A model generated the notes under the pieces. That model did not search any database, had not been told where the DNA came from, and saw only the letters and a list, made by a program, of their open reading frames with translations. The position numbers were made by a program, and so were the translations under genes. Positions 1 through 64,000 of a DNA stretch of 64,000 nt are shown here, piece after piece (the first letter of the stretch is position 1; the number at the start of each line of letters is the position of its first letter). This DNA comes from Asterochloris sp. CNOR1 (taxonomy: Eukaryota > Chlorophyta > Trebouxiophyceae > Trebouxiales > Trebouxiaceae): NCBI GenBank assembly GCA_963969365.1, contig OZ017761.1, positions 868,001 to 932,000 on the forward strand. The letters run 5' to 3'.

Positions 1-3000
1 ACCCTCTGCCGCCTGCAGGAGGAGTCTGAAGCGGTCACCCTGGCAGTCGACACAGTGGCCCGTGTTGTGCGCCTTATCTGGCCCCACGCCCGCACTGTGC
101 TGTTTGGCTCACAGGCCACCAGTTTGGCCCTGCCAGGCAGCGACCTGGACATTGTGGTGCTGGGCGTGACGCAGGACCTGGCCAGAGCTGGCACTGGCTT
201 CACCAAGTGAGCTGCTTGGCCTCGACGATGTGCTGGGTGTCACCGCTGGCTCTGGCTCCACCATGTTAGGGTGCAGCCCGCATTGCTGGCTGTTGAGCGC
301 AGTGCAGGCTGACACCTGCACTGTCAAGTGAATGACCTGTTGCTGGCCTGTCTTGCCTCAGCAGTGCTGGCTGTCAGCATCTTGCCGAACTGGCATGGCC
401 TTCACCATGGGCTAAACTTTTATTCGACTCAAATTCATGCCGCCAGTTGTGGGTATGGCCTCGTTTGAGGAGCTTTTCGCCAGAGGCTGCCCAGTAGTGT
501 GTGATGCAGTCGCTGCTGCTGCTCCTTACAGGAGCAGCAAGCACCCTGACAGATGACTGCTCGTCGCCTTGACAGCTGGTACATGTTTACTGTCCTGTGC
601 AAGCAGGGACTTGCAGAGCTTCCTGGTGGAGCTGCTGGAGGGCCTGCCTGTAAAGTGTGCTTCGGTCGCAGCATTGACAAGCCACCCACAGACTCATCTC
701 TGTCTGCAGGGACCAGCAGAGGTTCCTGGTGGAGCTGCTGGAGGACCTGCTGGACTGCCTGGTGTCAGGGGATATGGTGCTGGGGGAGCCCAAGATTATT
801 CAGGCCAAGGTACCCATCATCAAGGCCCGGCTGGACATTGGTGAGTCCTCGCTGCGTCGGCCATCACTAAGTGCGTAAACTGGAGGGCCTGTGCGCCTTT
901 CATCAAGGCTAAACTGAATCTGCATGAGTCTGCGCTGCATCGGCTGCTGCACTGGGTTGCTTGGCTTTGCCAGCAAGCTCATGTATCATGATTTGGGGCC
1001 CCTGCCCTTGGGACGGCCACCGCTGCTCATGTTGGGTGTCTTGGGTGCTCGAGCTTGGACTGACAGCAGCCACGCAGATCACTCCTACCTCGACAGGATC
1101 TTGAGCCACTATGACTGCAAGTTGCTGTGCCATACACGCAAGGGCTGACACGCAAGGGCTGACATGCAAGGGCTGCCCAGGCTGCCAAATCCGAGCCTGC
1201 CTGGACCAGCGCTGCGCAGGCTGCAATGCAGCTTGCTGCATGGGGATGTGCACTCCAAAGATGCTGATCTCTACAAGTCATTGCCCTGCAGGCGGCGGGC
1301 TGCCAGCAGACATCTCCCTGGCTGCTGCCAATGGTGCCGCCGCCGTGCAGCTCATTAAGGACCACATCCAGTCCATGCCCTGCCTGAAACCCCTGGTGCT
1401 GGTGCTGAAGGCATTTCTCAAGGTGAGCTGCGAGCATTTTGCTGCCAACATGGCCAGAGCACAGCAGAGAGGATGCTGCCAACATGCTGAGCTGAGCATC
1501 TTTCATTGGCTGGATGGGCCGACTGCAGGTTGTGGGCAGCATGCTGTGCCAGGCACAGGCTGGACCTTGGTGTTGTGTGGGCTGAGCTGCTGCCTTCCAG
1601 CTTGATGCTGTCGAGAATCCTGCTTGGCTGCGGCACATTGAGCTTGCACCTGAACCTGTGCCTGCTGAGGGCGTCTGTGCAGCAGGAAGGAACGAGGACA
1701 CCTCGGTCCCATCAGGCTGCGGCTGCCTCTGCTGCAGGAGGCTGGCCTCAATGAGGTTTTCACGGGAGGCCTGTCTAGCTACAGCCTGGTTTTGATGGCT
1801 GTCGCCCACATGAAGGCAGACCCTTCTGCTGATCTGGGGGACCTGCTCATCGGCTTCTTACGCCGCTTTGGAGCTGGGAGCACCACCTTTGACTATGTCA
1901 CCCACGCCGTGAGCCTGCGACAGGTGGGTGCTTGGGTTTGCTGCTTGATAGCTGCTGTGCATCGGATCACCTCAGCAGCTTGAGGGGGTGGGGTTTACCA
2001 ATTGGCCGCTGTGGCTGCTGTGCAAAGCAATTTTATGAGGGTGTCATGGTAGCCAATCTGCATGTTGCAGCAGTCTGTGGCAGCTTGACCTTAAGACTTG
2101 CTGCGCCAAGTTGTCAAGCGCAGGAATATCTGGCAGCCAGGGCAGTGAGTTCTGCAGGCACCTGAGGCAGACAGCCGAGTCCAGCTGTGTGTTGGGTGTT
2201 GACAAGCAGCCCTGGCAAGTGCAGGGTGGTTTCAAGCCAAAGAATGAGGAGTGGAAACAGGCCGCCAGGCCCCAGCTGCTGGCTGTTGAGGATCCTCAGG
2301 AGGCCGGCAGGGACATCGGGTCAGGCTCATTCAACATCAAAGCGGTGAGACTGCTGAGCGCTCTTGAGGCACCAGGCTTGCACAAGGCTGCAGTCGAAAT
2401 ACTGCTGACATGAAGCCCCTGCTCAAATGACTGTGAGACATGCACTCTGTGCTGGCCTGCCTCAAATCTGAATCCATGCCCCATGATACAGCTTCTCGCC
2501 AGCTGAAGTGGGGGTCTGCAGTGTGCAGGACTTTTGTCTGCCATAAACTGAGGAAAGCATGTGCTGTGCTGAGCAGCCCCTCAGGGCTGCAGCCCGGCAA
2601 TCCCAGCTGCGGTGCTCCTTTGTGTGAGTTCTGCCAGCTGCCTCTGCAGGTGGCAGAGCTGTTCTCTGATGCTGCTGAGGCGCTCGAGGCCAAACAGGCT
2701 GGCGCGGTGAGGCAGGGAGCTGTTGGCGGGGAGGCGCAGCTCTGGGCTACAGTGCAGGCTGATGGGCACAGTCAGAGTGTTGCCTCTAGGCGCCCTGGCT
2801 ATGCTGAGCAGTACCCCATCCTGAGCAGCATCCTAACGGTCGACCTGGCTGTTGCGCGTGATGCGAAGACTGCCAAGGCAAGCTCCCTGCAGTTGCCGGT
2901 GTGGCGGTTGCTGTGAGAAGGGGTGTGACTCCCTGCACAAGGGACCTAGCCATTGTAGCCGATGTGAAATCAGCCAATGCAAGTCCCTGATGAGTGACGA

Positions 3001-4128
3001 GTTGTGGCAGCTCCTGCGGAGGAACGGGACTCCTTGCGTCTCCTCCTGTGCTGCACAAACAGATATGTTGGTCAGCACCTGCATGGACGATGTGCAGATG
3101 CTTCACATGTGGTGGCAGTCAGCACCAGGCCAGCTCGCAGCAGCGCATGCATGTTGGCGCATGTCAACTACTCATCAAAGGTATGGCTCAGGGTTGCACC
3201 CTAGCTCACTTGCCTGCTCCCTGTGTGACGTGTGAGAGCCAGCTATGCCTCTGCTGCCTGTTGCTCCTGCAGGCTCGTGCAGACTTGGCCAGCGGCGTGC
3301 ACAGGCGTGCAGCCAAGATGAATGGGCAGCTGCAGCTGAGAAGCTGGCGGGACCTGCCCTCATGGGCACATGGGCCCATGCCCCTGAGGAGTGGGGCACA
3401 CTCCCAGCCCTCCAGTGTGGCAGCAGGTGGGGCGCTCTGCTGCATGTCGTGAATTTTCTGCATTGTATTGACTAGGGGGCGCTACACTTGTTGCTGTGAC
3501 AATTTGAGACACAGCAGCCCAGACTTGGAGGCCCACATTCTCATAGGCCTGAGGGAGCGGCTGTTGCTGGCGGTGCTGCAGGCTCGGCACTCCCTGGGCC
3601 GCCACGTGGGTGCACTGCTGCATGCTGCACATGCTGGGTCGGGCTGTGTGAGCGCTGCTGCCTGCCATGCTGCACATGCTGGGTTGGCTGTGCGCGCTGC
3701 TGCAGGCTGTGCACTTCCTGAGCACCCTGCACGTGCAGCTGGCATGCTTTTCTCACTGGACTGACGCTCAGAGCGCTGCTGCATGCTGTGCTACTCGCAT
3801 TTTGTCTGCTGTGTCAGGTGGGCACGCGAGGGGCGCAGCAGCCAGCCAGGCTCAGGACAATGCTGTTGCCAGTCTGCACCCAGCGCAAGAGGAGGGGCGG
3901 AAGGCTGCCAGGACCACCAAACGCACGACACGGGAAGCGCACCAGACGGCTCTGCGGGCCAGTCTGCAGAAGGTCCTGGTCGGCACCAAAGGCACGCCTC
4001 AGCACCTGCAGACAGTGCTGTCCAGGAATCAGGCCATTGCTGGGCGCGCCCGCCGCCCAACACGTCGAGGCGGCAAGCGGAAGAAGCCCGCCAGAACGGC
4101 AGCTGCTGCTGCACGAGACCATTCCTGA
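1..4128 (+). CDS. TRF4/PAPD5-like non-canonical poly(A) polymerase (5' end outside window)
   Basis: This is the 3' part of a nucleotidyltransferase of the TRF4/TRF5 (PAPD5/7) family, which adds short A tails to nuclear RNAs for exosome decay. Exon 1 (to 206) carries the catalytic signature: FGSQATSLALPGSDLDIVV, a Gly-Ser followed by the DxD metal-binding pair. Phase-consistent exons follow at 710-840 (ends KARLDI), 1292-1422 (PLVLVLKAFLK), 1738-1923 (the family motif LNEVFTGGLSSYSLVLM), 2225-2344 (VEDPQEAGRDIGSGSF, the nucleotide-recognition region), 2650-2706 and 2812-2877. Later exons near 3275-3400 and 3520-3612 are approximate. The last exon (about 3826-4128) ends in a strongly basic tail (RRPTRRGGKRKKPARTA), probably for RNA binding or nuclear import. 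The intron after 2877 starts with GC. Family assignment is firm; the C-terminal exon chain is tentative. Confidence 0.85.
604..648 (+). repeat. Intronic partial copy of the downstream exon start
   Basis: This intron segment matches the start of the real exon at 706-752 almost base for base: both run from gcaggga through tcctggtggagctgctggag. It would encode QSFLVELLEGL against QRFLVELLEDL in the real exon, but is followed by gtaaag and no usable frame. Either a decayed tandem copy or an alternative exon. Confidence 0.7.
1135..1176 (+). repeat. 14-bp tandem repeat, three units
   Basis: Three head-to-tail units of cacgcaagggctga (the last one slightly changed) lie in an intron of the poly(A) polymerase gene. 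No coding role is seen. Confidence 0.8.
3578..3745 (+). repeat. Degenerate duplicated segment near the poly(A) polymerase 3' end
   Basis: The segment at 3578-3615 (caggctcggcactccctggg onward, ending in cacgtg) recurs in degraded form at 3704-3740 (caggctgtgcacttcctgag onward, ending in cacgtg). Between them lie repeated gctgcacatgctggg blocks. The first copy is probably the exon end before the gtgggt donor. Confidence 0.55.
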
Positions 4129-5265
4129 CGCAATGTCCCAGCGCTATGCCTGAATTCAGTCAATAGCTGCCTCCTGTCCTGTTACACTGCCCCCCTTAAT
4201 GTTACCAGCCCTGTCAGCTCCCCAATGACCAGGTGCAAGCAGAGATGTGCAGCAACTGTGGAGTGCATCCTTGCTCAAAGACAAGGGGGCATGTCCCAGG
4301 GGCTAATAGCAGTGGCCTCCCTTTCATTGCATGGAAAGTGACATTCCATACGTGCTGGAATGTTGCACAAACGCCTCTCTGCTGATCTAGGCTGCCACCA
4401 AGCAGCTGACAACAATCATGAGCAAACACTGAGGTCCCGGCGGCAGCAGCATTTTGATGGCTGGTGCATGCCTTGATTCCCACAGCAGTTCAGATGGGAC
4501 AGCATTCACCTTGACCAGCTACTCTAATGATTCCACTTGACACGGCTGCACTGCTCAACATGTTCTCAAGTGGTCAAGCGGTGTGCATGTTGACAATGCG
4601 CGCTGCTGCCCAGGCATCTCCTGCGGGGTTAGCAGCAGGCGCAGGTTCTGGCCCCACTCATGCCTGCCTCTGCCACACTGCTGGGCTGTGCATGGAAGGC
4701 CAGGCCGCTTGGCATCCTCAGTAGGGGCGCTGCCATGGGCAGCCAGCCCCAGCCGATGCTGGAGGTCCCCCATGCTGCGCAGGAAGTTTGGGCGGCTGGC
4801 TGCTGGGCCTGCGGGGATGGTGCGCCAGGCTGCAGGCCACCCACTGCCTCTCCAGACTGGGCAGCAGCACCTGCCAGGAGCCTGACAGCAGTCAGCAGCA
4901 GCAGCAGGTCCCTTTGCAGCGTGCTGGCAGGCAGGGGCTGTGGGGGAGGGGTCTGCCCTGAGGGGGCAGGGGTCTGCCCGGAGGGGGCAGGGGCCTGCCA
5001 AGAGGGGTCAGGGGCCTGCCTCCCTTGCAGGTGTGCATTCAGCAAGCCAGACTAACAGCGCTGCTTCATGGGGCCCCCGCCAGGAGCGCAGTGCGGGGTA
5101 CAGCCTTGTTGCTCCAGCTGAACGTCACCAAGCAGGGAACCCAAAGTCGCAGCAACGCTTCAGGCGCGGGTCTGCTGGCAGCAGGTGGGGGGTGCCTGGC
5201 TGCCGGCTGTCTGGTGTCACTCTTGCCTCCAGCTGGACTGTGTGAACCCCTTTTTCTCCCAGAGT
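4129..5265. other. Region without a supported gene
   Basis: Downstream of the poly(A) polymerase stop I see no recognisable domain. Open frames near 4560-5055 on both strands are Pro/Ala/Gln-rich and mutually antisense, so they cannot both be coding. The only clear structure is the 21-bp tandem repeat at 4941-5024. Confidence 0.5.
4941..5024 (+). repeat. 21-bp tandem repeat, about four units
   Basis: About four units resembling gggggcaggggtctgcccgg, each 21 bp, so a coding reading would give 7-residue repeats: on the plus strand RGQGSAR-like, on the minus strand PAPSGQT-like. Each unit holds a short GC-rich palindrome (gggcag/ctgccc). Confidence 0.75.
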
Positions 5266-5281
5266 TACAGCATGGCTCCTT

Positions 5282-7037: not shown

Positions 7038-10000
7038 ATGAGTTTTGGGCAGCCCAGCATCGAGGGCTTTGCTCCCAAGCAGCAGGGGAGCAGCCTGCAA
7101 AACGGGGTGGGCCCCAGCAAGCCCAGCGCCCAAAGCTCGCCAGCGTCTTCCCAGGGCTCAGGATCCATGCTGGCACCCGGCGCCCTGGGCACTGCTCTGA
7201 GGAACAGCCCTGCCCGCAGTCAGAGCTCTGAGGGGTCGCAGAAGGAGGCCCAGGGGCCCACAGCGGAGCAGCGGGCGGGGAGGTCTCCCTACAAGGTGAA
7301 TGGTTCTGGGTGACCGTTATGCAACCGCCAGCTGCACGCAGTGCAAGACTGCAAGATCGGCCCACCTGACCTGTGTGCCTGCCTGCTCATTGGATGTGCT
7401 CTTTGGAGCTGTGCCAGTGCTGTACAGCAGGCCCTGGGAGTGCTACTTTGTGGTGGTCAGGCAAGACTTGGGCTGCTGTGCGTGGGCCCGCAATGTGGCA
7501 TCGGCAGACGCATGGCAGGCCCAGTCTGTGCTGTCGTGCAGGAAGTACATCCTGGGCTTGGAGATGTATCCTGCCCTCAGCATGAAAAGACGCTCATAAG
7601 CTCGACATGTATGGGCAGCCAAGATTCTCTCTGATGACTCACATCCAGACTGCCTTGAGGGCAGCAGCAGGGCTGCCTGCATGTGGCTCATGTGTGCAGC
7701 CCTGCAGCTGCCTGGCTGACCGCATCGGCCAGGAATTGCAAAGTGCAGGCGGCCCTGTGTCCAACAGTGCACCCGCCTGCTGCAGGTGGAGCGCACCAGT
7801 AACGGGGCACGAGAGGGCAGCACCACCTCCAAGCCAGCCCAGCCCCAGCACCAGATGGCGGCGCAGCCAGCCATGCACGCAATGCCCGCGGAGTGGCCCA
7901 AGCACCAGACGGTGGCCCAAGCGCCAGCCCCTCGCTCCATGGTGGGCCAGCCAGTGGCCATGGCCCCTGTGACCCCCCAGATGGTGGCCTCTGCAGGGGT
8001 GCCTGCAGGGCCCTACCAGCCGCAGTACATGCGCCAGCTGCCGCCCCAGGGACAGCAGCAGGGGCCGGGGACCCACCAGCAGGGCCCCCAGCTCCACCCC
8101 CACATGCACTGGCAGCAGGCAGCGCAGCGGCCCGGCGCCATGCGCCCCCCCTTCCGCCCCATGATGGCCGGCATGCCCGCCATCCCCCCGGGCTCAGCCG
8201 CCACGCCCGCCCAGCAGGTGCCACCTGCCCACCTGGCTGCAAATGCAGCAGCCGCAGCGGCGGCAGCCGCTGCCAATGCGGCTGCCTGGCAGCAGCGCGC
8301 CGCGGCTGCAGCCGCACGGCAGCAGCAGCTGCACCAGCAGGCAGCGGCGGCGGCCGCCGCCCGTCAGCCGCAGGGGCAGCCTGCGGCTGCCCCTGCCCAC
8401 AGGCCAGGGTCGCAGGCCTCTGGGCTGCCAGCAAGGCGGGCCCCGGCCAGCAGCGAGCCGGCCCCTGCCCCCATCCTGCCTGATGGGGTCCCCCCTGAGA
8501 CAGTGATCCCCAAAGGCAAGAACAAGACCTATCGTGGAGTGCGCCAGCGCCCCTGGGGGAAGTGGGCTGCAGAGATCCGGGACCCCAATGCGGGCGCCCG
8601 GCGGTGAGTGCCTGTCTGCGGTGTCACACACGAGAGCCCTGCGCGCGTCCATGCCACAGCCTGTTCTTGATGCAAACCTGTGCACATGGCTCTGGTGCGC
8701 AGGCTTCCGAGTCAGGGCCATTGACACCACTTGACACCCTGCAAACTACGCTTCAGCCTGCACTGCGTGGCAGGTTGCTTCTTTTTGAGCTCATGTGAAG
8801 GCTGAGATGGATCACCACACCTCCATTCTTGGCACTGGCTGGCTGTCCATGCTTCACATTGGCACTTCTCATTCTGGCATACCGCATGCAACGTCATTGC
8901 ACAAAGCAAGTCGCGCCACCCTGCATACCTCCCTACATGGTGCATGACAGCTTCTGGCTGCAAAGGTGGCCTTCACCCCCGCCCCCCCCCCCCCCCCCCC
9001 CTGCATGGCGGGTCATGCGTGCTATTGCTTCTATGGCCATGGACGCAGTGCATCTGCACAGCCAAAGGGCTGCATAGCTGGATCAGTCAGCAGTGTGAAG
9101 CAAGCAGTCCCCAAGCTCCTGCAGGTGGCTGGGCACCTTTGACACGGCGGAGGAGGCTGCAAGAGCTTATGACGCTGCCGCAAGGCAGATACGCGGCGCA
9201 GCAGCCAAATGCAACTTCCCGGAGGACGGTCTAGCCCCAGAGCCGGTGCCAAACCCCTCAGGTGCAGGTTTGTCAAGACACGATGACCGCGTGGGAGCTG
9301 CTGCCTAGTCCTGCACTTGCTGAGGTCACTCCTGATGTTGGCAAAGCCTTGCTAGGAGCTGGTGCAAAGAGCCTAAGGCTGATGCTCTGGGCAAGCTTTC
9401 ATTTTGGTCATTTGCTGCGGTCTATTGACAAAAGCTGCATGCTGTAAACGATGCAGTGGAACCAGGCTCGTGACATCACTGTCCCCTCGTTGCTGACTGC
9501 GTGATGTCATCTGCAGCAGGTCCTCGGGGTGCAGCAGCCAGGAGGACAACCTCAGCTGCTGCCCGCCAGGCCGCCAGGCCTGCTGTGCAGCCGGCAGCTG
9601 CTCCGCCTGGTGCAGATAACATGGCTGCTTCCCTGGAGGAGGGCAGGCTCATACACAACCACATGATGAGCAGCCGGGAGGCCATGGTGAGTGGCGTGGG
9701 CATCTTGGAATGTGCAAAGCTCAGCTGTGTGAACAGGTGCTGCTGGATGAGCAGCTGGGAGGCTTGGGCTGGAGGCCTGGGGCTGGGGGATGGTGCACTT
9801 GCTTAGCTGCCTCCACAGCTGCCTTACTAGCCGCCTACCATCCTTCTGACGGTCTGCTAGCCTTTTGATGACCTGATTTCCTCATGAAGGTGGATGCACT
9901 CTTTGACAATTGCCATGCAGATGTAGTCGTTCCCAGCTCCAAGATCTGGGGCAGAAGCACACTTGTTGATGCCAAAAAGCAGAGGCGCTGTGCTGCCATT

Positions 10001-13000
10001 GAGGAAGTCTGGGATCACCAAACTATTGGGAGATGTAGTCCAGGCGCAAGGGTGTGCCACAGGCACAGCGTGTGTTTCAGCTGCCTGTGACTTGCTCGAG
10101 CTGGGGTCTCCTGCAGGGAGTGATGACCGTGAGCGACGCCATGATGATCCCTCACGGGACGTCGCCAGGAGCCAGCCCAGCAGGCGTGCCCATGCAAATG
10201 CGAGCTCCCTCGGGTGGGCCTCAGCTTCTTTGCTCATCCAGTTGGGCAGGATGCACCAATGCTCTGCAACCTGCAGGCCTGCATACTGAGTGCACAGGGG
10301 CGTGTTTGTGTGCAAGGCATGCAAGGCTGCTTGCTGCCTTGTACTAATGCGGCCTCAATTCAGAGCAGCCTCTGCTGTGGCAACACGACAGCTTTGGCAC
10401 AATGCCAGAGTGTGTACTGGAGAGCTGGAGACTTCAAGGGGCGTCATCGCGGCGGTCTGTGCGTATGCTCCCAGACCATGCTAATTTCACTGATCACTTT
10501 GCCCTTGGGGAGCTTTGCAGGCACCACTATTGTGCCAATGTTGCAGCACCGCGGTCATCAGCGCCATGCAGGTTTCAGCCAAGCACTTCGCTGTGACAAG
10601 CACAAGCGACACTTGCCCTGCCGGTGCAGTGCTTTGGCCAGCAAGCAGTGTTTCTGCAGACATGCATGTGCTGGCGGGGTCCTGCAGCTGATGGCTTGGA
10701 GCTGTGCAGGCTTCGCCATGGGTCGGCATCGTGGAACTCCAGCCGGAGGCTGGTCAGCTGCAGACTGGCCAGGGCTGGGAACCTCTGCTGGGCGAGCAGG
10801 CGGTGTGGCCCTGGGGACCAGCCCCTTTGGCAAGAGTGTGGACATGGTGGACGTGTGCAGCCAGCTCATGGAGGAGGGAGGTGGGTCTGTATAACAGGGT
10901 CCCCCTTCAAGACTATGAAGAAATAGGTATGCAGCCAGCTCATACAGAAGGTGGTGCAATTAATTCTATGGAGGAGAACACCAATGTGTGCTGCCCAGTT
11001 CATGGGAGAGGGAGGTGGGGTTTTGGAGGGCCTGCTGGTTGGGAGTGGCAGTCGAGGCGGAGTGCGAATAAGTGCAGCCAGCTCATGCAGCCAGATTCTG
11101 GTGGCTTGAATCAGGTTCCAACGTCACTCCATGCTGAGTGCGATGCTTTGCTGAGAGGCGCACCATGCTGTGCCAATGCTGCAGTCGTATGGTCCTGCAG
11201 GCTGCACAGATGGCATCAACATGGGGAGTCTGCGGGCGGAGTTGGACATGCCCCAGTACTTCCGCGGTGCGCACACAATGGCTGACGGGGACTCAGAGGA
11301 TGATGCCATGGTCATGGGCTCCACTCCTGGGCTGCGGAGCGTTGACTCTGTGGTGAGCCACCTGCATGCCAGGCAGAGATGAGCCAGAGTCTGGCGTGTT
11401 CCGCTGCTCCAGAGGTGGCAGCATCAGGGTTTTGAATACCTGCAGCAGATGGGGCTCACACCTGTGATGTGAAGGACGGCAGACATGTGCCAGAAGGGCA
11501 CGATGCAGTTGCCTTGTGCTGCAGCTGCACTCCAGCATTGTGACAAGGACTTGCTCTCGGTACCAAAGCCGGCCTGCTGCAGATGGGCCGGCCACCTGTG
11601 GTGGTGCCTGCCCAGTGCAGTCGTCCGTGAGGCCACACTCTGATCCCGAGCATGTGGTGCAGATGGGGTCCACCCCTCTGGAGTGGAAGATGGCGCGTGA
11701 CCGGCAGACGTATGCCAAGGTGGCAGGCTCCCCTGCTCCCCCCCGGCACCCACTGGTGCAGCAGCAGCAGCAGCTGAGGGAGATGGCCATGCGCCAGCAG
11801 CAGCCCTGGCAGGAGGGGCAGAGCCAGCACATGGAGGTGCCGGGCGGGGGAGGGGCAGAGGGCCCGGGGCCCACGCAGGTGAGATCTGCTGAATGGGCAT
11901 GTGCTGTTGAGCTGTGCTGCAGTAAGCTGTGCATGCCCCAGCAGGGGCAGAGCGGGCACATGGTGTGCAGTGCAGGCCAGGGGGACCTGTCCCAAGTGAG
12001 GTATGGTGATGGTCTTGGCCTGCGGAGTGTGAAAGCTGTTAGCAAAGACAGCCTAGGTGGGAGCTCAGCGGCTAGGGCCCACACCGTAGGGACGGCAAGA
12101 CCGGTGCTGACATTTCTGGGCCTGCAGAGGTGGCTACTGTGCAGACTGTGGGCACAGAGCAGCTGTAGCAGGCACAAGCCTTGGCCAAATTCTGTGCATA
12201 AGGCCTCCGCCAAGCAATGGCGCTCTTCAGCGCTGCTACTGCCTGGCAGCTGGAGCTTGTCTGTGTGCCAGTGGGCTTCAGCACTTGACTCTGACCTGCT
12301 TGGCAACTGCTAGCATGCCTGAACATTTTCTGCAGCCGTGCAGAATCAACCAGACCTGGACTCTGCGACTGCGTATGGCTGTCTGCTGTGGTTTCATATT
12401 CTGCGCAGCAGGCCATCGTCAAGAGGTGCCTGACTGCTTTCTTGAAGCATGCTTTTGCCTGCTGTGCAGCCGCCCGACGGCCTGGCAGCACCGCCATCCA
12501 CCCCGCTGCGGGCGCAACCCGCCCTGCAGCAGCAGCAGCAGCAGCAGCAGCAGCCCACTATCGCCACACCTGAGCAGCCGGCCTCTGCACAACCGCAGCA
12601 GCAGCCTCGCACAGGCACCCTGCCCCAGGTAACGCTGTTTTCCCCATCCCTGAAGCAATAGTTTTGCATGCCAGCGCTACCGGCCACCTTCAGGGAGTTG
12701 TACCAGGCAGGAGCAGCACTTGCTGAGACTGCAGGTCTTTAACTGCAGTTCACATCTAAGGAGCCCACTCCTGATGTCTTGAAGCTGATGTTGTCTGCTG
12801 CAGTCGCTGCAGCAGCCGCAGACCTTTGCACCTTGCACTGCTAGATTTGCACCAGGGCCTGTGAGTCATTGTGGACTGCAACCCCAGCTCTTTGCATGCT
12901 GCAGGTGCAGTCGCTGCTGCTGACCTCATTTGGTGCGAGCCCTGTGGCTCCTCCAACCTGGTCCAACTACACTCATCATGCTGCAGGCGTGGCGGCAGCT

Positions 13001-20340: not shown

Positions 20341-20548
20341 GCGGACATCCATGACAGCACCTGTTCTTGCCAGCCCAACATCGCTCTGCTGATCATTACT
20401 TGCCACTTTTCTGAGTTCACATGCTGGCATGGCAAAGATGCCACATCGATCTGTGCCACATTGCCGCTCTCAGCTCTTGAGCTACAGCTATGCCACATGT
20501 ATGCAACATTTAGCTGAGCTCTGCTGTGTGAGAATGTGTGTGTCACTG

Positions 20549-21777: not shown

Positions 21778-21866
21778 TATAGCCCAGTTTCGAGCGTGGC
21801 AAAGGCCCGAACGCAGAGACATGCACAAATCTTAATGCATTGACCAGTGCCATGCGGGCTTCCGTG

Positions 21867-22790: not shown

Positions 22791-22952
22791 CCAAACAATC
22801 TGCAGGCCTTGGATTGCAACAGGTCGCGTGTCAGCATGTTGGTAGTCATGTGCGGCAGCACATTCAGGCAGCATAGGAGGCAATGAAATGTATCAACTGG
22901 TAGGACCATGACATGACACAAACAAAGCTGTTCTCAACACATCATCCAGAAC

Positions 22953-30023: not shown

Positions 30024-30075
30024 TCAGTACCTGCCTGCACGACGCTGGCATGCTACTCAATCAAGTCACACAACC

Positions 30076-54000: not shown

Positions 54001-57000
54001 GTCCAGCATCAGGTGCACAGCAGCAGATGACAGTGCAAACCTGGGCTCCCAGACGGGCAGGCGCTTGAGCTGGCTGTTGTGCTACAGGTCAAGGCAGCTG
54101 CGCTGCCCCATGCCCTGTGGGTGCCTCAAGGCAAGGGCCCCACCCATGGTCCACCACATCCGTCATGAGCTCAGGCACCCACATGCGCTGCAGGTCAAAG
54201 CAGGTGGCGCAGCCGCAGCACGCGCCCGCAGGGAGGTGCGCCTCGCAGTGGTTCGCAGTGCCGAGGTGGTGGCCTGCACGCTCTCCAGCGCAGGGGGCGA
54301 CCTGCTGGGGCTGGTCACCGAGAATGCTGCTGGGAGCCAGCCCTGCCCGCTGTTCAATGCTCTGATCATTGATGAAGTGAGCTGCCGGTGCCGCCTGGCT
54401 GGCTGCATGCCAGCTGGTGTCTGGGGAGTCATTGTCTGCGCTGCAGCCCCAGCGGTCTTTTCTTGTGAGTGCTGGGTTGAGTACACTTTCTGCAGGTGGT
54501 GGTCACTATCTGTGCAGCCAGCAGAGGCCGTGCTGCAGCTGAAAGCTCAACAGCCGGGCTGGTGCTGTGCAGGCAGCTGCGGGTATTGGAGTGCAGCCCC
54601 AATCGTGCTGCACCTCTTTGAGCCACCGCATTGCTGTTGGTCATCAGGCAGCGCAAGCACAGCTGGGGGGCTGCCCCTTGCTGCAACCCATCAGTGCAGC
54701 TGCAGGCAACCGGCGCTGCAAGGTTGTCTCTCGTTTTGTTGCAGCTGCACTAGCGCACTCAGCTGCTATGCAGGCGGCTCAGGCGCTGGAGCCTGCAGCC
54801 CTGATTGCTCTGCAGCTGATTGCGCCTGGTGCCAGGGTGGTGTTGGTGGGGGACCCCAAGCAGCTACCTCCTACCGTGCTCTCCCGCGCGGCAGAAGCCA
54901 GTCACCTGGCACAGTCGCTGTTTGAGCGGCTGCAGCAGGTGAGTTTGTTGCAACTCTCAGTTGAAAACGCGCTTTGCTTCAGACTTGATGATGTGCACAG
55001 CAGATCACAGGCCCCTGTGTGTGCTGAGACCCGGCATCAAGTAGTTTCGCTGTCTGATCAACTGCAGCAGGTGGCATCCTTGTGTCGTGCTCAGGGCTGC
55101 TAGGTGCCCATGCTTGTGGCTCCCAATGCCTGTCACCTGGCTTGGCAACTCTTCTCAGCACTGCACACTGCTCTGCTGAAGAGCAAACTCTCTGAGTCAG
55201 CTGCCTGTCCTGATGTAGCGCGGGTGTCCTGTGCCAGTCCGGGCTGTTGTCTTTTTGCAGCATCGCATGCACCCTGCCATCCACTGCTCAAGACTGCACC
55301 TGACCTTACAATAGGCCTGCACTTCTACAGGCTGGGTACCCTGTCACTCTGCTGTCTGAGCAGCACCGCATGCACCCCGCCATCGCCGTGTGGCCCTCGA
55401 CCTTCTTCTACCAGGGCAAGCTGGTCACTGCGCGCAGCCTGGCAGACGGCAAGGCTCGCAGGGCAGATTTTCACAGCCAGCCCTGCTTCCCTCCGCTGGC
55501 CTTCTTTGATTGCAGGCAAGCAGAGGCCGACTTGCCGTTGTGCCTTCTTATTGTACACCTTGTTCGCTGCTTTAGACATTCGAAGCGCGCAACACAACAG
55601 ATTCTATAAGCGAAGTCCTACACGCACAGCATGTCCTTACAGCAAAGAACACGGAAGTGCGATTTTGCTGTGCACAGAGGGGCACGAATTGTTTTGTCTT
55701 GGTCTTGGTCCTCCATGCGGTTGAATGTTCTGCAGCTGAGGCAGCGTATACTGTTCCCTGGTCTTGACCCAGCTGCTGCCTGCCACAGGTCCGGAGAGGA
55801 ATCGGGGGGGGGTGGAGCCTCCCTCTCCAATGCTGCAGAGGCCGTCGTGGCAGCCACTCTGTTTAAGGTGGCCGCACTTTGTGTGGCTTCACTGTAGAGT
55901 GCCACAGCTCACCATAGTTAAGGAAGCTCTGTTTCGTTCGTTTTTGAGTGGCCTGGCAGCTGACTGATGCATGGTCGCTGCCCTGCAGCTGCATTCACTC
56001 AACCAGGTCTGGCTGCATTGCCAGTCCTGTGAAGCTGGTCTCCGTGGACAAAGGAAGCCTCCTGATGTTTGACGCAGCCTAAACTTCATTGCAGGGGCTG
56101 ATGCGAGATTTTGGGTATGAGGTCCGCTCAGCTGTGGTGCTGACCCCCTACAGAGCCCAGCTAGGTCTGCTGCAGCGTGAATTCCAGAAAGTGCTGGGGC
56201 GCGGCGCAAAGGAGCTGGCTGCTGTCGAGTTCGCCACCGTGGACGGCTTTCAGGTGGGCCACTGTGCAAACTGTCCTACTGGCTTGTGAGGTGGCGGCCA
56301 TCTGCATTGTCAGCGAGGAGCTGGCTCTGTTGACGGCTGAGTGTTGCTACAATTATGACCGGCACAGTCGAAGCCCTCTGGGGGAGCCTGACAGCATCCT
56401 GCACTGTATCGTTCAACACGCAGAACAATGAGCTCGGCAGGGGTCGGTTGAGCTGCATTCCCTCAGTCATGCTTCACCTCACAAGATGCCTGCAGGGGCG
56501 GGAGGCGGACGTGGTGCTGTTCAGCTGTGTGCGCGCCCGTCACCCCAGCAGTAGTGGAGGGGTGGGCTTCCTAGCAGACGTGCGGCGTATGAACGTGGGT
56601 TTGACCAGGGGCAGGTACGCTGGCAATGTTGCTCTGCTGTTGCTTACTGTGTGTGCAGTCTTGAGACTGGCTTTTCTCAGTCTGTTGATGGCACTGACAG
56701 GTCAGGTTTGTAAAGGATAGGCCTTGGCTGCTATATGCTGCATGCTGATGAAAGAGAGCAATGGCGGTTCTGTTGCTTGCTGGCATGAGAGTGCTGCCAG
56801 GATTGACAGCTTGTGCTGCAGGACAGCCACTGGCTCACATCTGCATCCAGAAGGTCAGCTGCCAATATGCTGCTCTCCATGATACTCAGCAGCTGTGCCT
56901 ATCTTTGCAGACGGGCAGTCTGGGTGATTGGCCATGCTGCCACGCTTGAGAGGAGCCCGCCCTGGAAGGCATTCATGGACCATACCCACCAGCAGAAAAC

Positions 57001-57079: not shown

Positions 57080-57808
57080 ATAAGAATTGCCATGATCAAT
57101 TCAAACCATAAAGTGGCATGTGCTCATTGGCACAAAGCAGCCTTAACCTGTGCAATTTTGGCTCTAGAGCTCACTGCAATGACACTTTGCCCATTCATGC
57201 ATCACTCAGAGTGTCCAGCACCTCAAATTTGTGTGCCTGCCCTCCTTGCCCCACCTCAGTGACATTCACTTCAAGGATACACTCCATCTGTCTGACAGGC
57301 AGATTATGCATGCGCTGCGGCGATCACATGGATTTATTGTGATCAATTTTATCAAATGGATGGCTAGAATGGAACAGGATGACAGTGGGTACGGGCACGT
57401 ATATTCAGGGCGGTGCAAATGACAACAGCATGAAGCAGAACAGCATACGGTGTGAACCTCTCAGATGAGCTTGTAAGTCAGGCTTCAAGCTCCTTTGAAG
57501 GCATGAACAGGCTCATTTTGGGCAATGTGACAACCGGTGAAGCTGCAGGGGCAAGACAGACAGACAGTCGGAAACAAGACAGCACATGATCTTGCTACTT
57601 CTGTTTATACGAAGGACTGTGCATCATAAAGGACATGTTGAGTGACGAGCAGCAGATGCGCAGCAGCCCAGGCTGCAACGTCAAGCCTGCCTGGCCCCCA
57701 TGGGGCAGCGCTGAGCTGACTTGGCAAGGCTGATAGTGGCATCTGTGACACTTGCAGACACCCAGGTCAGGGTAGATTGGGCCAACCTGGCCATGGCCAG
57801 AACAACCT
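57080..57808. other. Convergent intergenic region, no gene seen
   Basis: Between the SEN1 stop and the end of the minus-strand S/P-rich gene the sequence is more AT-rich and holds no exon-like frame with splice sites. It should contain both 3' UTRs. Confidence 0.6.
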
Positions 57809-60800
57809 TCAGCAGGGCACTGACTTAAACCCCAACACCTCGAGCACGGTTTCCTTCAAGCAACAAAGCAGGGTTACCTGGACCAGTAAGTGAGCTGACT
57901 TCAGCAGGGAGGCGCTAAGCTGTGCGAGCAAACCTGAGTCACAATTCTCTTTAGCAGGCTCCCCCTGGCCCCCTGCACCGGCAGGCAGCAGACCTGTCCG
58001 AAAGCAGAGCGCCCCACCTGGGCCGTCGCCAGAGCTGACTTCAGCAGGCTCTGCTTTGACCCCCAGCACTGACAGGCGCTCCAGTGCATTGCAGGCGCTG
58101 TTCTCCTTGTCGCGCAGAGGCCTGTGGGCCTCCAGGTGGGGGTGAGGCCCCAGGGATTGCGGCTGCACGGGCTGCTGCTGGTGCAGGTGGGCTGGCTGCG
58201 CCTGATTGGCCGATGTGTCCATGGACGAGAACGCCTGCGGCAGCACGATCAGTTGGCGACGCCGAGCCACTGTGATGCACTCTGGTCTGGGTGAAGGGCT
58301 GCATGCTGAAGGTGCTGCTTTGTCGTATGCCATTAGGTGCGGTCCTTTCCCCAGATGTGAAGCTCATGACAAGCGCAACACCTGGACCTCTACTGCGCTT
58401 GCTGCCACCGGAGGTCTCCGCCCTGCCATGGCTTGCGGCTCTACCAGGATCATGGCGCAGCCCAGGCCAATGGTGGGCCTCAAGGTGCTGGGGATTTCAT
58501 GTTATGCCCTGGTGCAAGCACTGCCCCACACCATACAGGGGTGCAGGTTTACACAAGGTGTGTACTGCCCAAAAAGGGAGCCTCTCTGGCTGATCTGGGA
58601 GCCTCCCCGTACCTGCTGGGCCTGAGGCGGCCCCAGTGGTCCCCCTGGCTGCCCTGCGCCGTCTGTGTCCAGCATCCTGTGAGCTCCCCAGGAGGCGCCT
58701 GCATCGCCCGACTGCACCGCCGCACCCCATGTGCCCATCTCAGCACCTGCGTGCAATTGGGTGATCTCTCAGCAACACAAGCCACAGTCCACCTGCCATG
58801 CAGGTGCTGCAGGTGCTTGCACGAGGCTGGCGCCGAGCAAGCTCAGCCTTGTACAGGCTTGGGCAGAAGAGGGACCCATTGGCAGGTGGTCTGCGACTTC
58901 ACCCTCCTTGCAGTTATGCCATGACCACAGTGAGTGAGGGCTGAATTAGAGGAGGGCCTGGACAGGTGCTCAAAAAGCAGCCAATTAATACACTGTGAGC
59001 GACCCACCTGCGTGGGGGCTCGGTGGGGGAGGCGTCAGGCGGATGTCCAGCGGCGCGACCTCCAGCAGGGCAGCCGTGCTGGGGGGCGGCATGAGCCCGG
59101 CCTCGCCCGCCAGGCACACCGAGCCCGCCGGCAGCCACCCCTTCACTGCCGACCCCTGCTGGGGGAAGGCAGGGCTCCCACACCCCCCACAGCCATGCAG
59201 CGGACGCTCCACCCGGGCGCTGCCGTGGGCCCCCGCTGCAGCCGGCGAGGCCCGTGAAGCCGCTGAGCCATAGCCATGGGTGGCGGCAGCAGCTGCGCCG
59301 GCCGCCAGCGCAGCGGCTGCCAGGGGGTGCGTCGTCTCCGCTGCTGCGGCCAGGGCGTCCAGGCTGCTGGAGTGGGGGCTGTAGCAGGGGCCCCGCAGGC
59401 AGGGGGAGCCTGCAGGGCCCAGGCCCTGGCCAGTCGTCAGGGGGCTGCCAGGCAGGCACCCAGGCGGCGCGGAGGCGCTCGAGTGCAGCCCACAGGCATC
59501 CCGTGCAGTGATGTAGTGCTGCAGGCTGATGCGCACATCTGCAGGGAGCAGGGGGTCGGAGGGCGTCGGTATCTGTTTGGAGTGTGGCCTGTGAGATGCA
59601 GTGCTGCTGGCTGTTGCACATATCTGCACTGACCAGGGGTGGTGCCCATGTAGGGTGCAAGCTAGTTGATGTGGTGCTTCAGGCTCATGCTGCACAGAGC
59701 AGGGGACGAAGGAGTGCAGGCAACTGATTCAGGTGGCAGAGAGAGGCAGAAACATGTGTCAGTGTCAGCGAGGTGACTACACCTGCTCCAGGGAGGGTGC
59801 AGCTGCGCATTGCAGCACTTTAAGGACTTGTGTCGATGTCACCACATTGCAGCCTGAGTTGTTCACAGTGTCAGGCATGCTGCATCTGGTCGGCCTGAGC
59901 ACGCCGGCATGCTCGGCAGGCATGGCCAAACCTGAGCCAAAGCTGGGACTGGCTGCCACGTCTGACTTGTGCTTCTTGGCAGGGGACCCCGTCGTCAGCG
60001 TTTCCTTGGAGTCTGGCTGCTGCTCAGCCACCTCTGGCCATCCTGCAGAGGCGCAGGCAGCCATGAAAGCGAACCATGAGCTGGGTCTGCAGGCAGCTGT
60101 GTTGTCAGCGCGCCTTTACAGTCCCCTGCTGCTCAGCCTCTCTGAAACAAACTGTTGTGGCGCAGGCAGCCAGGAAGTTGAATCAGGGGGGTTGATCTGC
60201 AGGCAGCTATGTTGTCACTGTGTCTTGAGAGTCCAGCTGCTTGTCACCCACCAGTGGCAGCCCTGCTGTGGATTTAGACTGCACCAGCAGGGGGGCAGTG
60301 CATGGGCAAGATTGGTGTAATGTGCGCTTGCATACCACCACAAGTGCCAGTGTGCCTGCAGCACCTTGCCCCGCTCATGCTGCCTCAGCACGTGCGGATG
60401 TTGAGCCTTCCCAGGCTAGCCAAAGTCCCACGAGCAACTCTGCTCACCAGCAGGGGTGGCATAGGGCTCGTAAAGATTTTGCAACTGCAGCTGCATCCAT
60501 CAGAGTGCTCATGCTGGTACATGTGCCTCCCCTCATGCACAGACAAATCACCATGTGCAATGAGGCAGCTCCTCAGACCTTGCAGCAGCCCTGCATCTGA
60601 GCTCACCAGCAGGGTCACAGCAGAGCACAGCTGGGCAGCGTCATGGGCCCAATCATGTGCCCCCAGACCGCTTGCATCAGCACTGCAGCTGGGCTCACCT
60701 GCGGGGATGGTCTGGGGCACATAGGTGGCCTCCCCCGCCTCCTTGCCCTGCTTCAGCGCCTGCTCCACGTTGAGCCGCCGCGCAACAGTGTGGCGCCCAG

Positions 60801-63800
60801 CTGTGCGCGCCATGCTGCTCCCGGGCATGGGGCTCCACCCTGCAGGCGCACAGCCAAAGCAATCATGATGAAGGTGGAGCTCAGGAGGTGGGCTTGAATA
60901 GTGGTCCTTGCATCACAGCTCAGACTGCACCAAAACATGCTCAAGCTGACAAGCAAGGTGGACAGGTGAACACCTCCACACACAAAAATTGGGTGGCACC
61001 ACCCTCCCTCCAAAGAGCTTCCAAGCAGCACCTCCGTTGGCAGTCTTCTCGCCATGGGCTCAGGGGAGAGTGACATGGACCAGTGCGCATATCCGACGTG
61101 CAAATGCACTGCACCCATCTGATGTTTAGGTCCGAGTGCAGACAGCCCAGCTTTGCTGTCAGAGTGCCTCCCCAAACATGGGGCGCAAGTCACAATGTTG
61201 TGCAAGGGTCGATTGCAGGTAAAGGCAGCCCGACTGCACTTATGGCGCTCATCTCCGGATGAGCAGTGACTTCTGTCCCACAAGAGCAGTCTCTATATAG
61301 GACAGCCTGCAAGACCCAGGCACCACTGTTGCGATCCCCAGCGGGGCACTTCGTGGCATGGGCTCCCTGCCGCGCCAGAAGGGTGTCATGCATGCCTGGC
61401 CAGACTACCAGAGACAGCAACTCTTCGTGCCAGCAGCCGACCTGCCCCTGTGGTTGTCCTAGACAGAGCACCCAGCGGCGCCCCTTGTTCAACAACTGCA
61501 TGCTTGCCTGACCAGTCCAGGCAGCCCACTCAGCCCCACTGCGCCTCCTGGTGGGACACTTTGCAGCGTGCACCACTCCCCAAGCTTGCTCCTGGCCCAG
61601 CAACTTCCCAGCCAAGGGCGGCTTGTTTGCCTTTGTGGCACACTCAGCCGGGAGGGACTGGTCATTCAGCAGTCTCCATGCAGCACACAGCCTTGCGAAC
61701 CCACCTGTCCCCGCTGCGCTCCCAGAAGGGGCACTCTGCGGCGTGCCCCCTTCCCCCAGCTTCCTCTTGGCCCACTCAGGGGTGAACAGCCCTGCCAGGG
61801 CGCTGCTGCCGCCATTGGGGCTGTGGCACCCGGTGGGAGACTGCAGCATGCTGGCCAGGTGCATCGGCGACATGTTAGCCGGGGGCCAGGGCTTGCCTCG
61901 CAGGCTCTGCGGTGTCACCTTGGGCTGCGCACCTACAGAGTCAATCACTCGGATGTCAGAGTGGGGAAGAGTGATGCAAGTGGCACTCCCCTGCAGGTTC
62001 AGGGACATGACCCGGCGGCCTGCGCACACACTCACACATTCCACTGTTGCGCAGGCTGGAGCTCAGAGAGGCAGCCTGGGCTGTGCTCGAGAAGCCCCTC
62101 CAGTTGTGTCAGATGCGCCCTGCAGGCTCTGCCAGCTCACCTTGGACTGCACACATTGGCAGGGTGCACACAGGTATCTTCCAAGACTGAACAAGGGTCT
62201 GCCACAGCATCCCCTGTCAGCCACCTCACAATCCAATCCCAGGGCTCACTACCCTGGGCGTCCATCCACCTTTGGCGGAGTGCACAAGGCGTCGCCGTTA
62301 TCGATGATGGCCTGAGTGACCCTAGGATGCACAAAGCACTGCAATAGAGCCTTGTCTTGACAGAGAAGGACACTGGGCCCCAGGCTCACCTCCCTGGGCT
62401 GTGGCCCCTTCATTGCTCTGCGGCTGGGGCGGCTGCACGTGAGTGGGCGTCCCCATCTGGGCAGCCACGCTGCTGGGCAGGGGGTGGGGGCCACGCTTGG
62501 GGCTCCTGAACACTCCTGCACAGCAGGGGCAGGCCACGCAAGCAGTCAGCACTGCAAAGTCACAGGGTGTGGCTGGGGCTCCTGGACGCTCCTGCACAGC
62601 TGGGCAGGCCATGTCAGCACTTAGCGCTGGAGATTCCCAGATCCTGGATCTCAAACCAACTGTGTGCAGAATCCTACTCAATGCATGCAGGACGCGCCTG
62701 GGCAGCAGGCAGCTTGAGCGAACATAACACCCTGGAGTAGGCTGCACATGGCGGCACTCCACGTTGGGCAGCGGCCTCATGGCAAACAGTTGCCAAGCGG
62801 CACCATGATGGCCAGGCTGCGCACCTGCTGAAGGCCTGGGGTGGGGAATGGAACGGGGGACAGGGGGACTGGAGAGGTAGGAGCGCCCCTCAGCATCCCT
62901 GACAAACAGATCCACCTCCAGCAGCCCTGTGTCCACGCCTGCAACAGGACAGCATCACATCTCAAAGTCAGTCATTATGTCTTACATAAGCGCTGAGGCA
63001 TGGTTGTGCAGGATGGGGCCAACTTAGATGGACAGAGCAATGTCCCTAGCATGCAGCGCGAGGTGCAGGCAGCAGCGTGCAAAAGGACCAAAATACCCAT
63101 GTGAGCTGAAGGACATCCCTTGTGGGTGAAGGATTGCACAGCCAGCAGCAGACCTGTGCTGCCTGCGCTGCTGTGACGTCGCAGAGGGGAAGCAGCCGAG
63201 CCGCGTGGGGCTTTATAGGGGGAGAGGGCTCGCCTGTAGCTGCGTGTGAGCGGCCTGCACCCAGCAGCAAGGCACACTCGATTCGTACGCCTTAGAAGCT
63301 GCAGTATTTGCCTGCCTCAACCCAAGCTGGCTGGCAGCACTGTGCCTTGTGGTTTCAAGAGCAGGCAGTGATGACTGCACAGTTTAGTGTATGCACAGAG
63401 GGCTTGGCCAGCGGAGACAACATGACAAGAGGCAAATAGCTTCAATGCATGTCCACCACATGGTAGCGATGCTGAGCTGCTACAGCAGCATCAGATCTGG
63501 TTGCATGCTCATTGACAGTTGGACAGTGATGCTGAAGTATCTCTCTGCCAACTGCATGCCTCTCAACAAGTCTTCAGCAGCTGGGGGGGTTCACTGCTCC
63601 ATAGCCTTACCTTGTGACAGCACTGCTGAGCTGCTGCAGCGTCTCCCCAGCCTCCAGGTCTGCCTCGTCCACATCTCCCAGCTCAGTGGACAGGCTGGCG
63701 TGAGTAAGGCTGGCGCTCCCACTCTGCATCGGGGACCCTGCAGCATTGTGGGAAGTGCTGCATGCCACCCCCCAAGATGGCATGAGTCGAGCTGGGGCTG

Positions 63801-64000
63801 TCAATGTGCATGGCCCAATGCAGCACAGGGGAGCAAGTGTGCGGGGCTCCCTGGACGCAAAGTACAGGCTGGCATGGGGCGGGGCAGCGCCTCCACCCTA
63901 CAAAGGGCAAAACAGGTTGAGAGGCTGGTCATGAGATGCTGTGCAATGCAGCGGAGGACAGGCTGGCATGAGTCAGGCTCTGGCTCTCGCTCTGCATGGG
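57809..64000 (-). CDS. Unidentified Ser/Pro/Ala-rich protein, 5' part beyond the window
   Basis: A run of minus-strand exon candidates with Ser, Pro, Gly, Ala and Gln bias fills this region: 63737-63611 (SASLTHASLSTELGDVDEAD), about 62943-62820 (GLLEVDLFVRDAEGRSYLSS), 62520-62390 (FRSPKRGPHPLP), 61935-61700 (SPMHLASMLQSP, then FTPEWAKRKLGEGG), 60830-60700 (ARRLNVEQALKQGKEAGEAT), 60045-59900 (SPAKKHKSDVAASPSFGSGL), 59560-59000 (Ala/Ser-rich), 58750-58617 and 58240-57950 (DKENSACNALERLSV). Motifs such as AKKHK and GSKRSR hint at nuclear location. No catalytic or binding domain is visible; the conserved part may lie beyond 64000. A regulatory or chromatin protein is possible, but that is a guess. 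The end near 57809 and exon borders are approximate. Confidence 0.5.
59985..60262 (-). repeat. Three-step ladder in the S/P-rich gene
   Basis: The exon part at about 59993-60045 (plus strand cgtcagcgtttccttggagt, then ctggctgctgctcagccacc) recurs at about 60105-60150 (tgtcagcgcgcctttacagt, then cccctgctgctcagcctctc) and 60212-60260 (tgtcactgtgtcttgagagt, then ccagctgcttgtcaccc). The period is about 105-110 bp. Confidence 0.7.
61335..61830 (-). repeat. Three degenerate units, open in one minus-strand frame
   Basis: Plus-strand blocks gggcacttcgtggcatgggc (about 61340), gggacactttgcagcgtgca (about 61551) and gggcactctgcggcgtgccc (about 61727) are related, as are the segments after them. On the minus strand all three stay in one open frame from 62044 to 61190 and read THATKCP-, VHAAKCP- and TPQSAPS-like units. 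Confidence 0.65.
62495..62632 (-). repeat. Duplicated exon start in the S/P-rich gene
   Basis: ggggctcctgaacactcctg with cacagcaggggcaggccacg (62499-62540) and ggggctcctggacgctcctg with cacagctgggcaggccatgt (62574-62615) are tandem relatives. On the minus strand both place a tgtgcag acceptor before gagtgt/gagcgt and a caggagccccaagc-like start. Confidence 0.75.
63685..64000 (-). repeat. Repeated segment at the right edge
   Basis: The exon region 63688-63735 (ggacaggctggcgtgagtaa, then ctcccactctgcatcgggg) recurs at 63956-64000 (ggacaggctggcatgagtca, then ctctcgctctgcatggg), with a shorter echo at 63864-63885. One of the copies may be the neighbouring exon, cut by the window edge. Confidence 0.65.

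What the first reader, a model, noticed from the sequence alone, without database searches (positions are those of the whole stretch)
604..64000. Introns carry ladders of degraded copies of the adjacent exon edge
Seen in at least six genes. Copies of an exon start, with the tgcag acceptor, sit in the intron before it; copies of an exon end, with the gt donor, sit in the intron after it. There are two to four steps, usually 60-210 bp apart, and similarity falls with distance in some ladders. This suggests that introns here grow by repeated tandem duplication across splice junctions, leaving decayed pseudo-exons and competing splice sites. I know of no named system matching this polarity rule.
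Basis: partly seen in the sequence, partly recalled or inferred. Interest (0 to 1): 0.85.

Follow-up and report, generated by a model that had tools for sequence, protein, structure and literature searches.

The report
Introns stretched by local tandem duplications
In this green alga, short stretches of DNA that cross an exon-intron border have often been copied in tandem, and the spare piece of exon stays in the intron as a decaying fossil, so introns grow and keep dummy splice sites.

Summary
I sampled 324 kb of this 56.4 Mb genome with a self-trained gene finder (571 introns). Exon ends had a top-ranked copy in their own downstream intron in 68 of 416 cases, exon starts in their upstream intron in 48 of 413; chance is 1.6%. 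Opposite polarity, mid-exon, inverted and same-gene non-adjacent-intron controls were near chance (1.0-3.3%).

Several of the best-preserved copies align over their whole period, so they look like tandem duplications across a splice junction, mostly 75-330 bp apart. A plain model explains most of this: small tandem duplications arise in genes; alleles survive when the exon stays intact, which sets the polarity; exon-derived copies stay recognisable longer because one partner is constrained. Random placement plus simulated decay predicts nearly the observed junction share (92 of 123, p = 0.24; stricter alignment 50 of 71, p = 0.04), so a strong junction-seeking mechanism is not needed, though a mild excess remains possible.

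Weaker than claimed: two or more copies at only 17 of 829 edges, and no steady fall of similarity with distance (9 versus 6, 2 ties). The intron-gain signature is rare (2 of 462). Copies keep GT or AG at about the neutral rate.

The parts
603..647 (+). Copy of the exon start (706-750) with the last four acceptor bases gcag; my gene finder called it an exon (607-654)
   Evidence: 91% over 45 columns, offset 103; palm-domain Pfam score 48.8 bits without it vs 46.5 with it
900..944 (+). Copy of the exon end plus donor region 817-861 in the downstream intron; donor GT reads AT in the copy
   Evidence: 71% over 45 columns, offset 83; not among the systematic hits
364..413 (+). Copy of exon end 157-213 (donor at 207) in intron 207-606; a second copy lies nearer
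   Evidence: z 4.8, id 0.72; two copies
2943..3037 (+). Copy of exon end plus intron start 2842-2936 (donor at 2899); nearly abutting, offset 101
   Evidence: z 5.6, id 0.69
9746..9822 (+). Copy of 9665-9740 (donor at 9687), AP2-domain gene
   Evidence: z 4.9, id 0.69
10927..10956 (+). Ladder step 1 for the exon end at donor 10881
   Evidence: 83% over 30 columns
10986..11019 (+). Ladder step 2 for donor 10881
   Evidence: 88% over 33 columns; z 5.8 for the longer alignment
11072..11126 (+). Ladder step 3 for donor 10881
   Evidence: 79% over 52 columns
17905..18001 (-). Copy of 17997-18092 (donor of intron 17604-18027), abutting tandem, offset 91
   Evidence: z 21.4, id 0.73
23760..23897 (-). 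Copy of 23951-24090 with offset 194, close to the intron length of 197: candidate intron gained by tandem duplication (intron 23814-24010)
   Evidence: donor-vs-acceptor score 157; no null score reached 105
31613..31705 (-). Copy of 31942-32036 (donor of intron 31103-31959); three copies in this intron
   Evidence: z 8.1, id 0.71; ladder
35817..35959 (-). Copy of 36079-36215 (donor of intron 35617-36167); two copies
   Evidence: z 6.3, id 0.62
49231..49338 (+). Copy of 49166-49263 (donor at 49218), helicase-like gene
   Evidence: z 3.9, id 0.63
52703..52761 (+). Copy of 52617-52679 (donor at 52677); two copies
   Evidence: z 3.9, id 0.67
53475..53649 (+). Copy of exon start region 53582-53755 (acceptor before 53664) in the upstream intron
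   Evidence: z 11.7, id 0.65
55047..55073 (+). Copy of exon end 54915-54941 (donor at 54939)
   Evidence: z 4.5, id 0.85
57782..57838 (-). Copy of exon end 58013-58069 (donor of intron 57543-58017); two copies
   Evidence: z 4.6, id 0.74
59667..59749 (-). Copy of exon start region 59509-59601 in the upstream intron 59539-59931; two copies
   Evidence: z 6.5, id 0.69
61488..61660 (-). Copy of 61665-61843 (donor of intron 60840-61704), nearly abutting tandem, offset 175
   Evidence: z 5.5, id 0.66
62542..62640 (-). Copy of exon start region 62461-62565 in the upstream intron 62516-62824
   Evidence: z 4.7, id 0.71

Best explanation
Small direct tandem duplications (units roughly 60-350 bp) arise at many places in the genes of this alga. 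When the duplicated unit crosses a donor or an acceptor, the product holds two copies of that exon edge with its splice site. The allele survives if splicing uses the copy joined to the rest of the exon: the upstream donor, or the downstream acceptor. The other copy then lies in the intron and decays freely. This gives the polarity. Exon-derived copies remain detectable longer than intron-derived ones because one partner stays under coding constraint. Repeats of the event give ladders and longer introns. Shown here: direct, local, polarised copies, tandem in the best cases; decay without frame; junction placement near that expected from chance plus decay. Inferred: the order of events, that the outer splice site is used, and the molecular cause (probably end joining of staggered breaks or nicks, as proposed for rice).
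For: Polarity and adjacency: 68/416 and 48/413 vs 1.0-3.3% in the controls. No excess of inverted copies (10/416, 5/413). Tandem geometry: L008 offset 101, original -50..55, copy 51..159; L012 offset 98, -95..2 and 4..100; L012 offset 74, -53..27 and -126..-47. TRF finds 14 arrays of period 50 or more, 8 of them part exon and part intron. Annotation-free census: 202 near pairs vs 7 far-control pairs at score >= 120 (about 9.5 after scaling for length). Random placement expects 54.5 junction and 34.1 intron-internal pairs; observed 92 and 31. With simulated detection the expected junction share is 0.698 (observed 92/123, p = 0.24) or, with strict alignment, 0.584 (observed 50/71, p = 0.04). Wholly exonic repeats tend to keep frame (strict 7 of 8, loose 12 of 20; some overlap one another), while junction and noncoding ones show no preference. 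Exon codon-position identities 0.779/0.813/0.751, gap lengths rarely multiples of three. Introns with edge copies are longer (median 429 vs 297), though longer introns also offer more room.
Against: Strict alignment leaves a mild junction excess over random placement plus decay (p = 0.04). Over all 89 hits the aligned span is only 0.70 of the offset (median), so tandem contact is shown only for some; the L016 acceptor pair (80% identical) spans 117 of 214 bp. Very young pairs are somewhat few for a constant rate: identity >= 95% in 3 of 102 vs 146 of 1102 simulated. Intergenic DNA may hold fewer pairs (8 of 39, p = 0.045; 3 of 24, p = 0.07). No RNA data show which splice site is used. No related genome could be read.
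Confidence: 0.83

Rival explanations
1. Introns born by tandem duplication of exonic AGGT: the whole intron is the duplicate, so its 3' end resembles the upstream exon end and its 5' end the downstream exon start.
For: Two introns fit: window 23814-24010 (score 157) and L012 955-1189 (score 197).
Against: Only 2 of 462 introns of 120 bp or more reach score 90, against 0.09% in the null. Typical offsets (median 130) are shorter than the introns. Introns under 120 bp were not tested.
Confidence: 0.04
2. The duplication machinery prefers splice junctions or transcribed DNA (for example breaks at R-loops or stalled spliceosomes).
For: Strict alignment gives 50 of 71 junction pairs vs 0.584 expected (p = 0.04); intergenic pairs 8 of 39 vs 0.368 expected (p = 0.045) and 3 of 24 vs 0.303 (p = 0.07); bases in pairs 5.3% intergenic vs 13.8% intronic.
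Against: The loose census fits without it (p = 0.24). The simulated constraint and indel rates are assumed. The gene finder may pull duplicated coding-like DNA out of 'intergenic'.
Confidence: 0.1
3. The copies are functional: alternative exons or maintained decoy splice sites.
For: AG is intact in 19 of 24 gap-free acceptor copies vs 58% for control dinucleotides (p = 0.04, uncorrected); 26 of 48 donor copies and 11 of 25 acceptor copies still score above the weakest 5% of live sites. The copy 607-654 is open and in frame.
Against: GT retention 31/46 is not above control (p = 0.29). Gap lengths are rarely multiples of three and copies are exon fragments. The palm domain fits slightly better without the 607-654 copy.
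Confidence: 0.05
4. Chance or compositional similarity.
For: Some background exists (far control 7 pairs at score 120).
Against: Same-composition controls stay at 1.0-3.3%; one pair is 84% identical over original -50..55.
Confidence: 0.01

Closest known systems
Intron gain by tandem genomic duplication (reviewed in PMC3443670; Drosophila cases in PMC2891723; passages seen)
   Same: Local tandem duplication inside a gene, with duplicated splice-like sites; outcome filtered by splicing and selection
   Different: There the duplication makes a new intron as long as the repeat. Here an existing intron grows and its length is unrelated to the repeat. Only 2 of 462 introns fit the gain model.
Patch-mediated tandem duplications in rice (Vaughn and Bennetzen 2014; known to me here only through a passage and reference in PMC7407515)
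   Same: Direct local duplications of about 10-1000 bp, explained by staggered nicks and end joining
   Different: The pairs here are mostly old (86 of 102 strict pairs under 90% identity) and breakpoints were not resolved.
Tandem exon duplication / mutually exclusive exons (PMC9013439, start of abstract in a listing only)
   Same: Exon sequence repeated inside the neighbouring intron
   Different: Here exon edges are copied, usually with one splice site and no conserved frame.
Introners (PMC9860276, start of abstract in a listing only)
   Same: Mass change of intron content
   Different: Introners are dispersed copies between genes. Here copies match their own neighbouring exon and not non-adjacent introns of the gene.

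Membership tests
Intron growth by local tandem duplication | Direct copies lie in the adjacent intron only | tested here: met
   68/416 and 48/413 vs 1.0-3.3% for opposite-polarity, mid-exon, inverted and non-adjacent controls
Intron growth by local tandem duplication | Copy and original abut, aligned span equals period | tested here: inconclusive
   Met for several of the best-preserved pairs; over all 89 the median span/offset is 0.70, which decay could explain
Intron growth by local tandem duplication | Unduplicated state in a relative | not testable with these tools
   No related genome is held for G000
Intron gain by tandem genomic duplication | Donor region homologous to acceptor region, repeat length = intron length | tested here: not met
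   2 of 462 introns
Patch-mediated (staggered nick) tandem duplication | Local direct duplications of tens to hundreds of bp | tested here: met
   Offsets 75-327 bp for 5-95%
Patch-mediated (staggered nick) tandem duplication | Breakpoint signature in young alleles | not tested
   Few young pairs; no population data
Functional duplicated exons | Whole exon, both splice sites, frame kept | tested here: not met
   Exon fragments; gap lengths rarely multiples of three
Minisatellite arrays | Many nearly identical copies | tested here: not met
   14 TRF arrays of period 50 or more in 324 kb, 12 of them under three copies; 86 of 102 strict pairs under 90% identity
Introners | Same element in introns of many genes | tested here: inconclusive
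   Exon-edge copies do not match non-adjacent introns of the same gene; other genes served as background, and a general search for introners was not made

The most novel reading that the evidence does not exclude
Tandem duplication here is coupled to transcription or intron removal, so introns grow by their own activity, and the spliceosome of this alga tolerates or even keeps the resulting decoy splice sites, some as strong as live ones.
Probability: 0.12. Interest if true: 0.75.

Novelty: new variant of a known kind. Interest (0 to 1): 0.5.

Why it matters
Intron lengthening is often credited to transposons (general knowledge). Here 116 of 829 tested exon edges (14%; chance 1.6%) keep a detectable fossil of small-scale duplication, and about 14% of intron bases lie in local pairs. 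The copies form a set of polarised events for testing how introns lengthen, how fast released exon sequence decays, and how splicing picks the right site beside a former twin. They can also mislead gene prediction: my own gene finder called one copy an exon.

Tried and rejected

Past burst of duplication: suggested by 2 of 202 pairs at 90% identity or more with loose extension against about 15-17% simulated. With stricter extension, intron-internal pairs fit a constant rate (7/21 vs 170/488), while junction pairs (4/52 vs 163/614) and the 95% class stay low. Some young junction pairs leave the class because the copy was called an exon (window 603-647 is one), so I do not claim a burst.

Intron birth: 2 of 462. 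Inverted copying: no excess. Gradient of similarity: not found. Selection against decoy splice sites: not found. Codon-position and gap counts rest on alignments with loose ends; the simulated junction pairs were donor-type only. Dropped rows: single-exon gene models, introns under 120 bp and exons under 40 bp in the edge test (571 introns gave 416 and 413 edges); 89 of the 829 edges passed z >= 3.5 for the alignments. Literature: nine searches listed no title or abstract start that I recognised as this pattern; the library lacks most subscription papers.

Full report
Where the window lies. It is G000:C16:868001-932000 in a 56.4 Mb genome of 21 contigs; the first 18 are 2.0-4.5 Mb long. COX1 lies on C20 (110,056 bp) and rbcL on C21, so these look like the mitochondrial and plastid contigs. 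Size, GC near 58%, many introns and the mitochondrial length resemble Asterochloris glomerata: 56 Mb, GC 56-62% in 98% of the genome, 9 introns per gene, mitochondrion about 110.9 kb (passages of PMC6652019). Trebouxia 'A48' fits less well (69 Mb, GC 49.7%; passages of PMC12712428). That the organism is an Asterochloris-like alga is an inference; no named record was compared.

Data and gene models. I read the window, 18 stretches of 10 kb from 18 contigs and two blocks of 40 kb, 324 kb in all. A hidden Markov gene finder trained on these data settled at 571 introns with clear signals, donor CAG|GTGAG and acceptor CTGCAG|G. Eight of nine window protein segments matched a Pfam family: poly(A) polymerase-like, AP2, Ysc84, DUF427, DUF4385, FKBP, bestrophin-like and AAA. 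The gene models are therefore good overall, though not exact.

Local repetition without annotation. In the window, identical 12-mers are shared about 5 to 45 times more often in every bin from 45 to 180 bp than at kilobase distances; there were none at 180-210 bp, and sharing nears background beyond about 300 bp. Over 324 kb, 202 local pairs reach score 120 at offsets 40-499, against 7 at offsets 4000-4459 (about 9.5 after scaling for usable length).

Main test. The last or first 40 nt of each exon were aligned to the neighbouring intron and to 60 length-matched stretches of introns from other genes. The real intron ranked first for 68 of 416 exon ends and 48 of 413 exon starts; 1 in 61 is expected. 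Reversed polarity gave 7/296 and 3/307, mid-exon pieces 4/198 and 7/214. Intron-only pieces gave 19/465, 20/465 and 23/389, a smaller excess. Reverse-complemented edges gave 10/416 and 5/413, and non-adjacent introns of the same gene 6/395 and 5/389. The window and the other loci agree (D 16/92 and 52/324; A 6/91 and 42/322), and hits are not significantly clumped by locus (p = 0.10) or gene (p = 0.40): 41 of 70 genes have at least one.

Geometry. Of 829 edges, 89 passed a strict cut (56 donor, 33 acceptor). In several of the best-preserved cases the aligned span is close to the offset and the copy starts where the original ends: offset 101 with span 105 in L008, 98 with 97 and 74 with 80 in L012, 151 with 157 in L008. 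Others do not show this: an L016 acceptor pair, 80% identical, spans 117 of 214 bp. The median span/offset is 0.70 and the median offset 130. Tandem Repeats Finder, which knows nothing of genes, reports 14 arrays of period 50 or more; 8 are part exon, part intron, 4 intronic, 2 exonic, 0 intergenic.

Why the polarity. A unit with both sides of a junction, copied in tandem, leaves one edge joined to the body of the exon and one not. Only the allele that splices at the joined edge keeps the message. So exon-end copies must lie downstream and exon-start copies upstream. This is reasoning, supported by the frame test: repeats lying wholly in exons have offsets divisible by three in 7 of 8 (strict) or 12 of 20 (loose) cases, some of them overlapping repeats of one exon, while junction and noncoding pairs show no preference.

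Why exon edges stand out. Random placement of the 202 pairs expects 54.5 junction pairs, 34.1 intron-internal, 19.9 intergenic, 81.0 with exon on both sides, 9.2 exon against intergenic and 3.4 mixed; observed were 92, 31, 8, 69, 2 and 0 (one search gave nearly the same with finer classes, among them exon-exon pairs 22 vs 5.7). Simulated decay with a constrained exon partner makes junction pairs about 1.45 times (loose) or 1.26 times (strict) as detectable as intron pairs. The expected junction share is then 0.698 against 92/123 (p = 0.24), or 0.584 against 50/71 (p = 0.04) with strict alignment. Most of the prominence of exon edges is thus accounted for; a mild preference for junctions is not excluded. 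The constraint (0.25) and indel rate in the simulation are assumed, and only donor-type junctions were simulated. Identity is higher in the exon part (median 0.785) than in the intron part (0.743), as expected.

Ladders and decoys. Two or more copies occur at 17 of 829 edges, 0 of 827 controls, 7 of the 17 in the window. The nearest copy is best in 9, the farthest in 6, with 2 ties (p = 0.61). A clear ladder is at donor 10881 with three steps. Donor GT is intact in 31 of 49 aligned copies and acceptor AG in 19 of 28, against 59% and 58% for control dinucleotides. Of 48 donor copies, 26 still score above the weakest 5% of live donors and 9 above their own live donor; of 25 acceptor copies, 11 and 3. 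Competing sites are therefore not visibly removed; for AG there is a faint hint of retention (p = 0.04, uncorrected).

Age. With loose alignment very few pairs were young (2 of 202 at 90% or more). With strict alignment 16 of 102 pairs reach 90% identity, among them L006 6818-7350 (265 bp, 94%). Intron-internal pairs fit a constant rate (7/21 vs 170/488); junction pairs (4/52 vs 163/614, p = 0.001) and the 95% class (3 of 102 vs 146 of 1102, p = 0.0007) are low. Gene-model error and assembly collapse are possible causes, so a decline in rate is only a suggestion.

What is known. Tandem duplication as a source of new introns is established (PMC3443670, PMC2891723, passages seen). Local tandem duplications of 10-1000 bp in rice have been ascribed to staggered nicks and end joining (PMC7407515, passage). 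The present pattern uses the same kind of event but lengthens existing introns. Nine searches of the paper library showed no listing that I recognised as this pattern, which does not prove absence. I call it a new variant of a known kind, of middling interest: the mechanism is plain; the prevalence and the clean polarity are what stand out.

Noticed in passing
window 23814-24010 (- strand); L012 955-1189: Two introns whose donor and acceptor regions are homologous with a repeat about as long as the intron: candidates for introns gained by tandem duplication.
   Followed up: partly
L006 6818-7350: Young tandem duplication, 265 bp unit, 94% identical, covering exon and intron sequence.
   Followed up: no
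324 kb sample, predicted intergenic parts: Intergenic DNA may hold fewer local pairs than introns (5.3% vs 13.8% of bases; 8 of 39, p = 0.045, and 3 of 24, p = 0.07). Could be biology or gene-finder bias.
   Followed up: partly
L017 947-1236; C3b block (L022) block coordinates about 21067-22900; C8b block (L025) about 15142: Repeats inside predicted exons, mostly with offsets divisible by three, probably protein repeats.
   Followed up: no
window 8982-9001: Run of 20 C inside an intron of the AP2-domain gene.
   Followed up: no
window 39062-57071: A single predicted gene of 39 exons with an AAA_11 helicase-like domain; may be two genes joined by the gene finder.
   Followed up: no
G000 C20 and C21: COX1 falls in two matches on C20 (perhaps an intron in mitochondrial cox1); rbcL on C21.
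   Followed up: no
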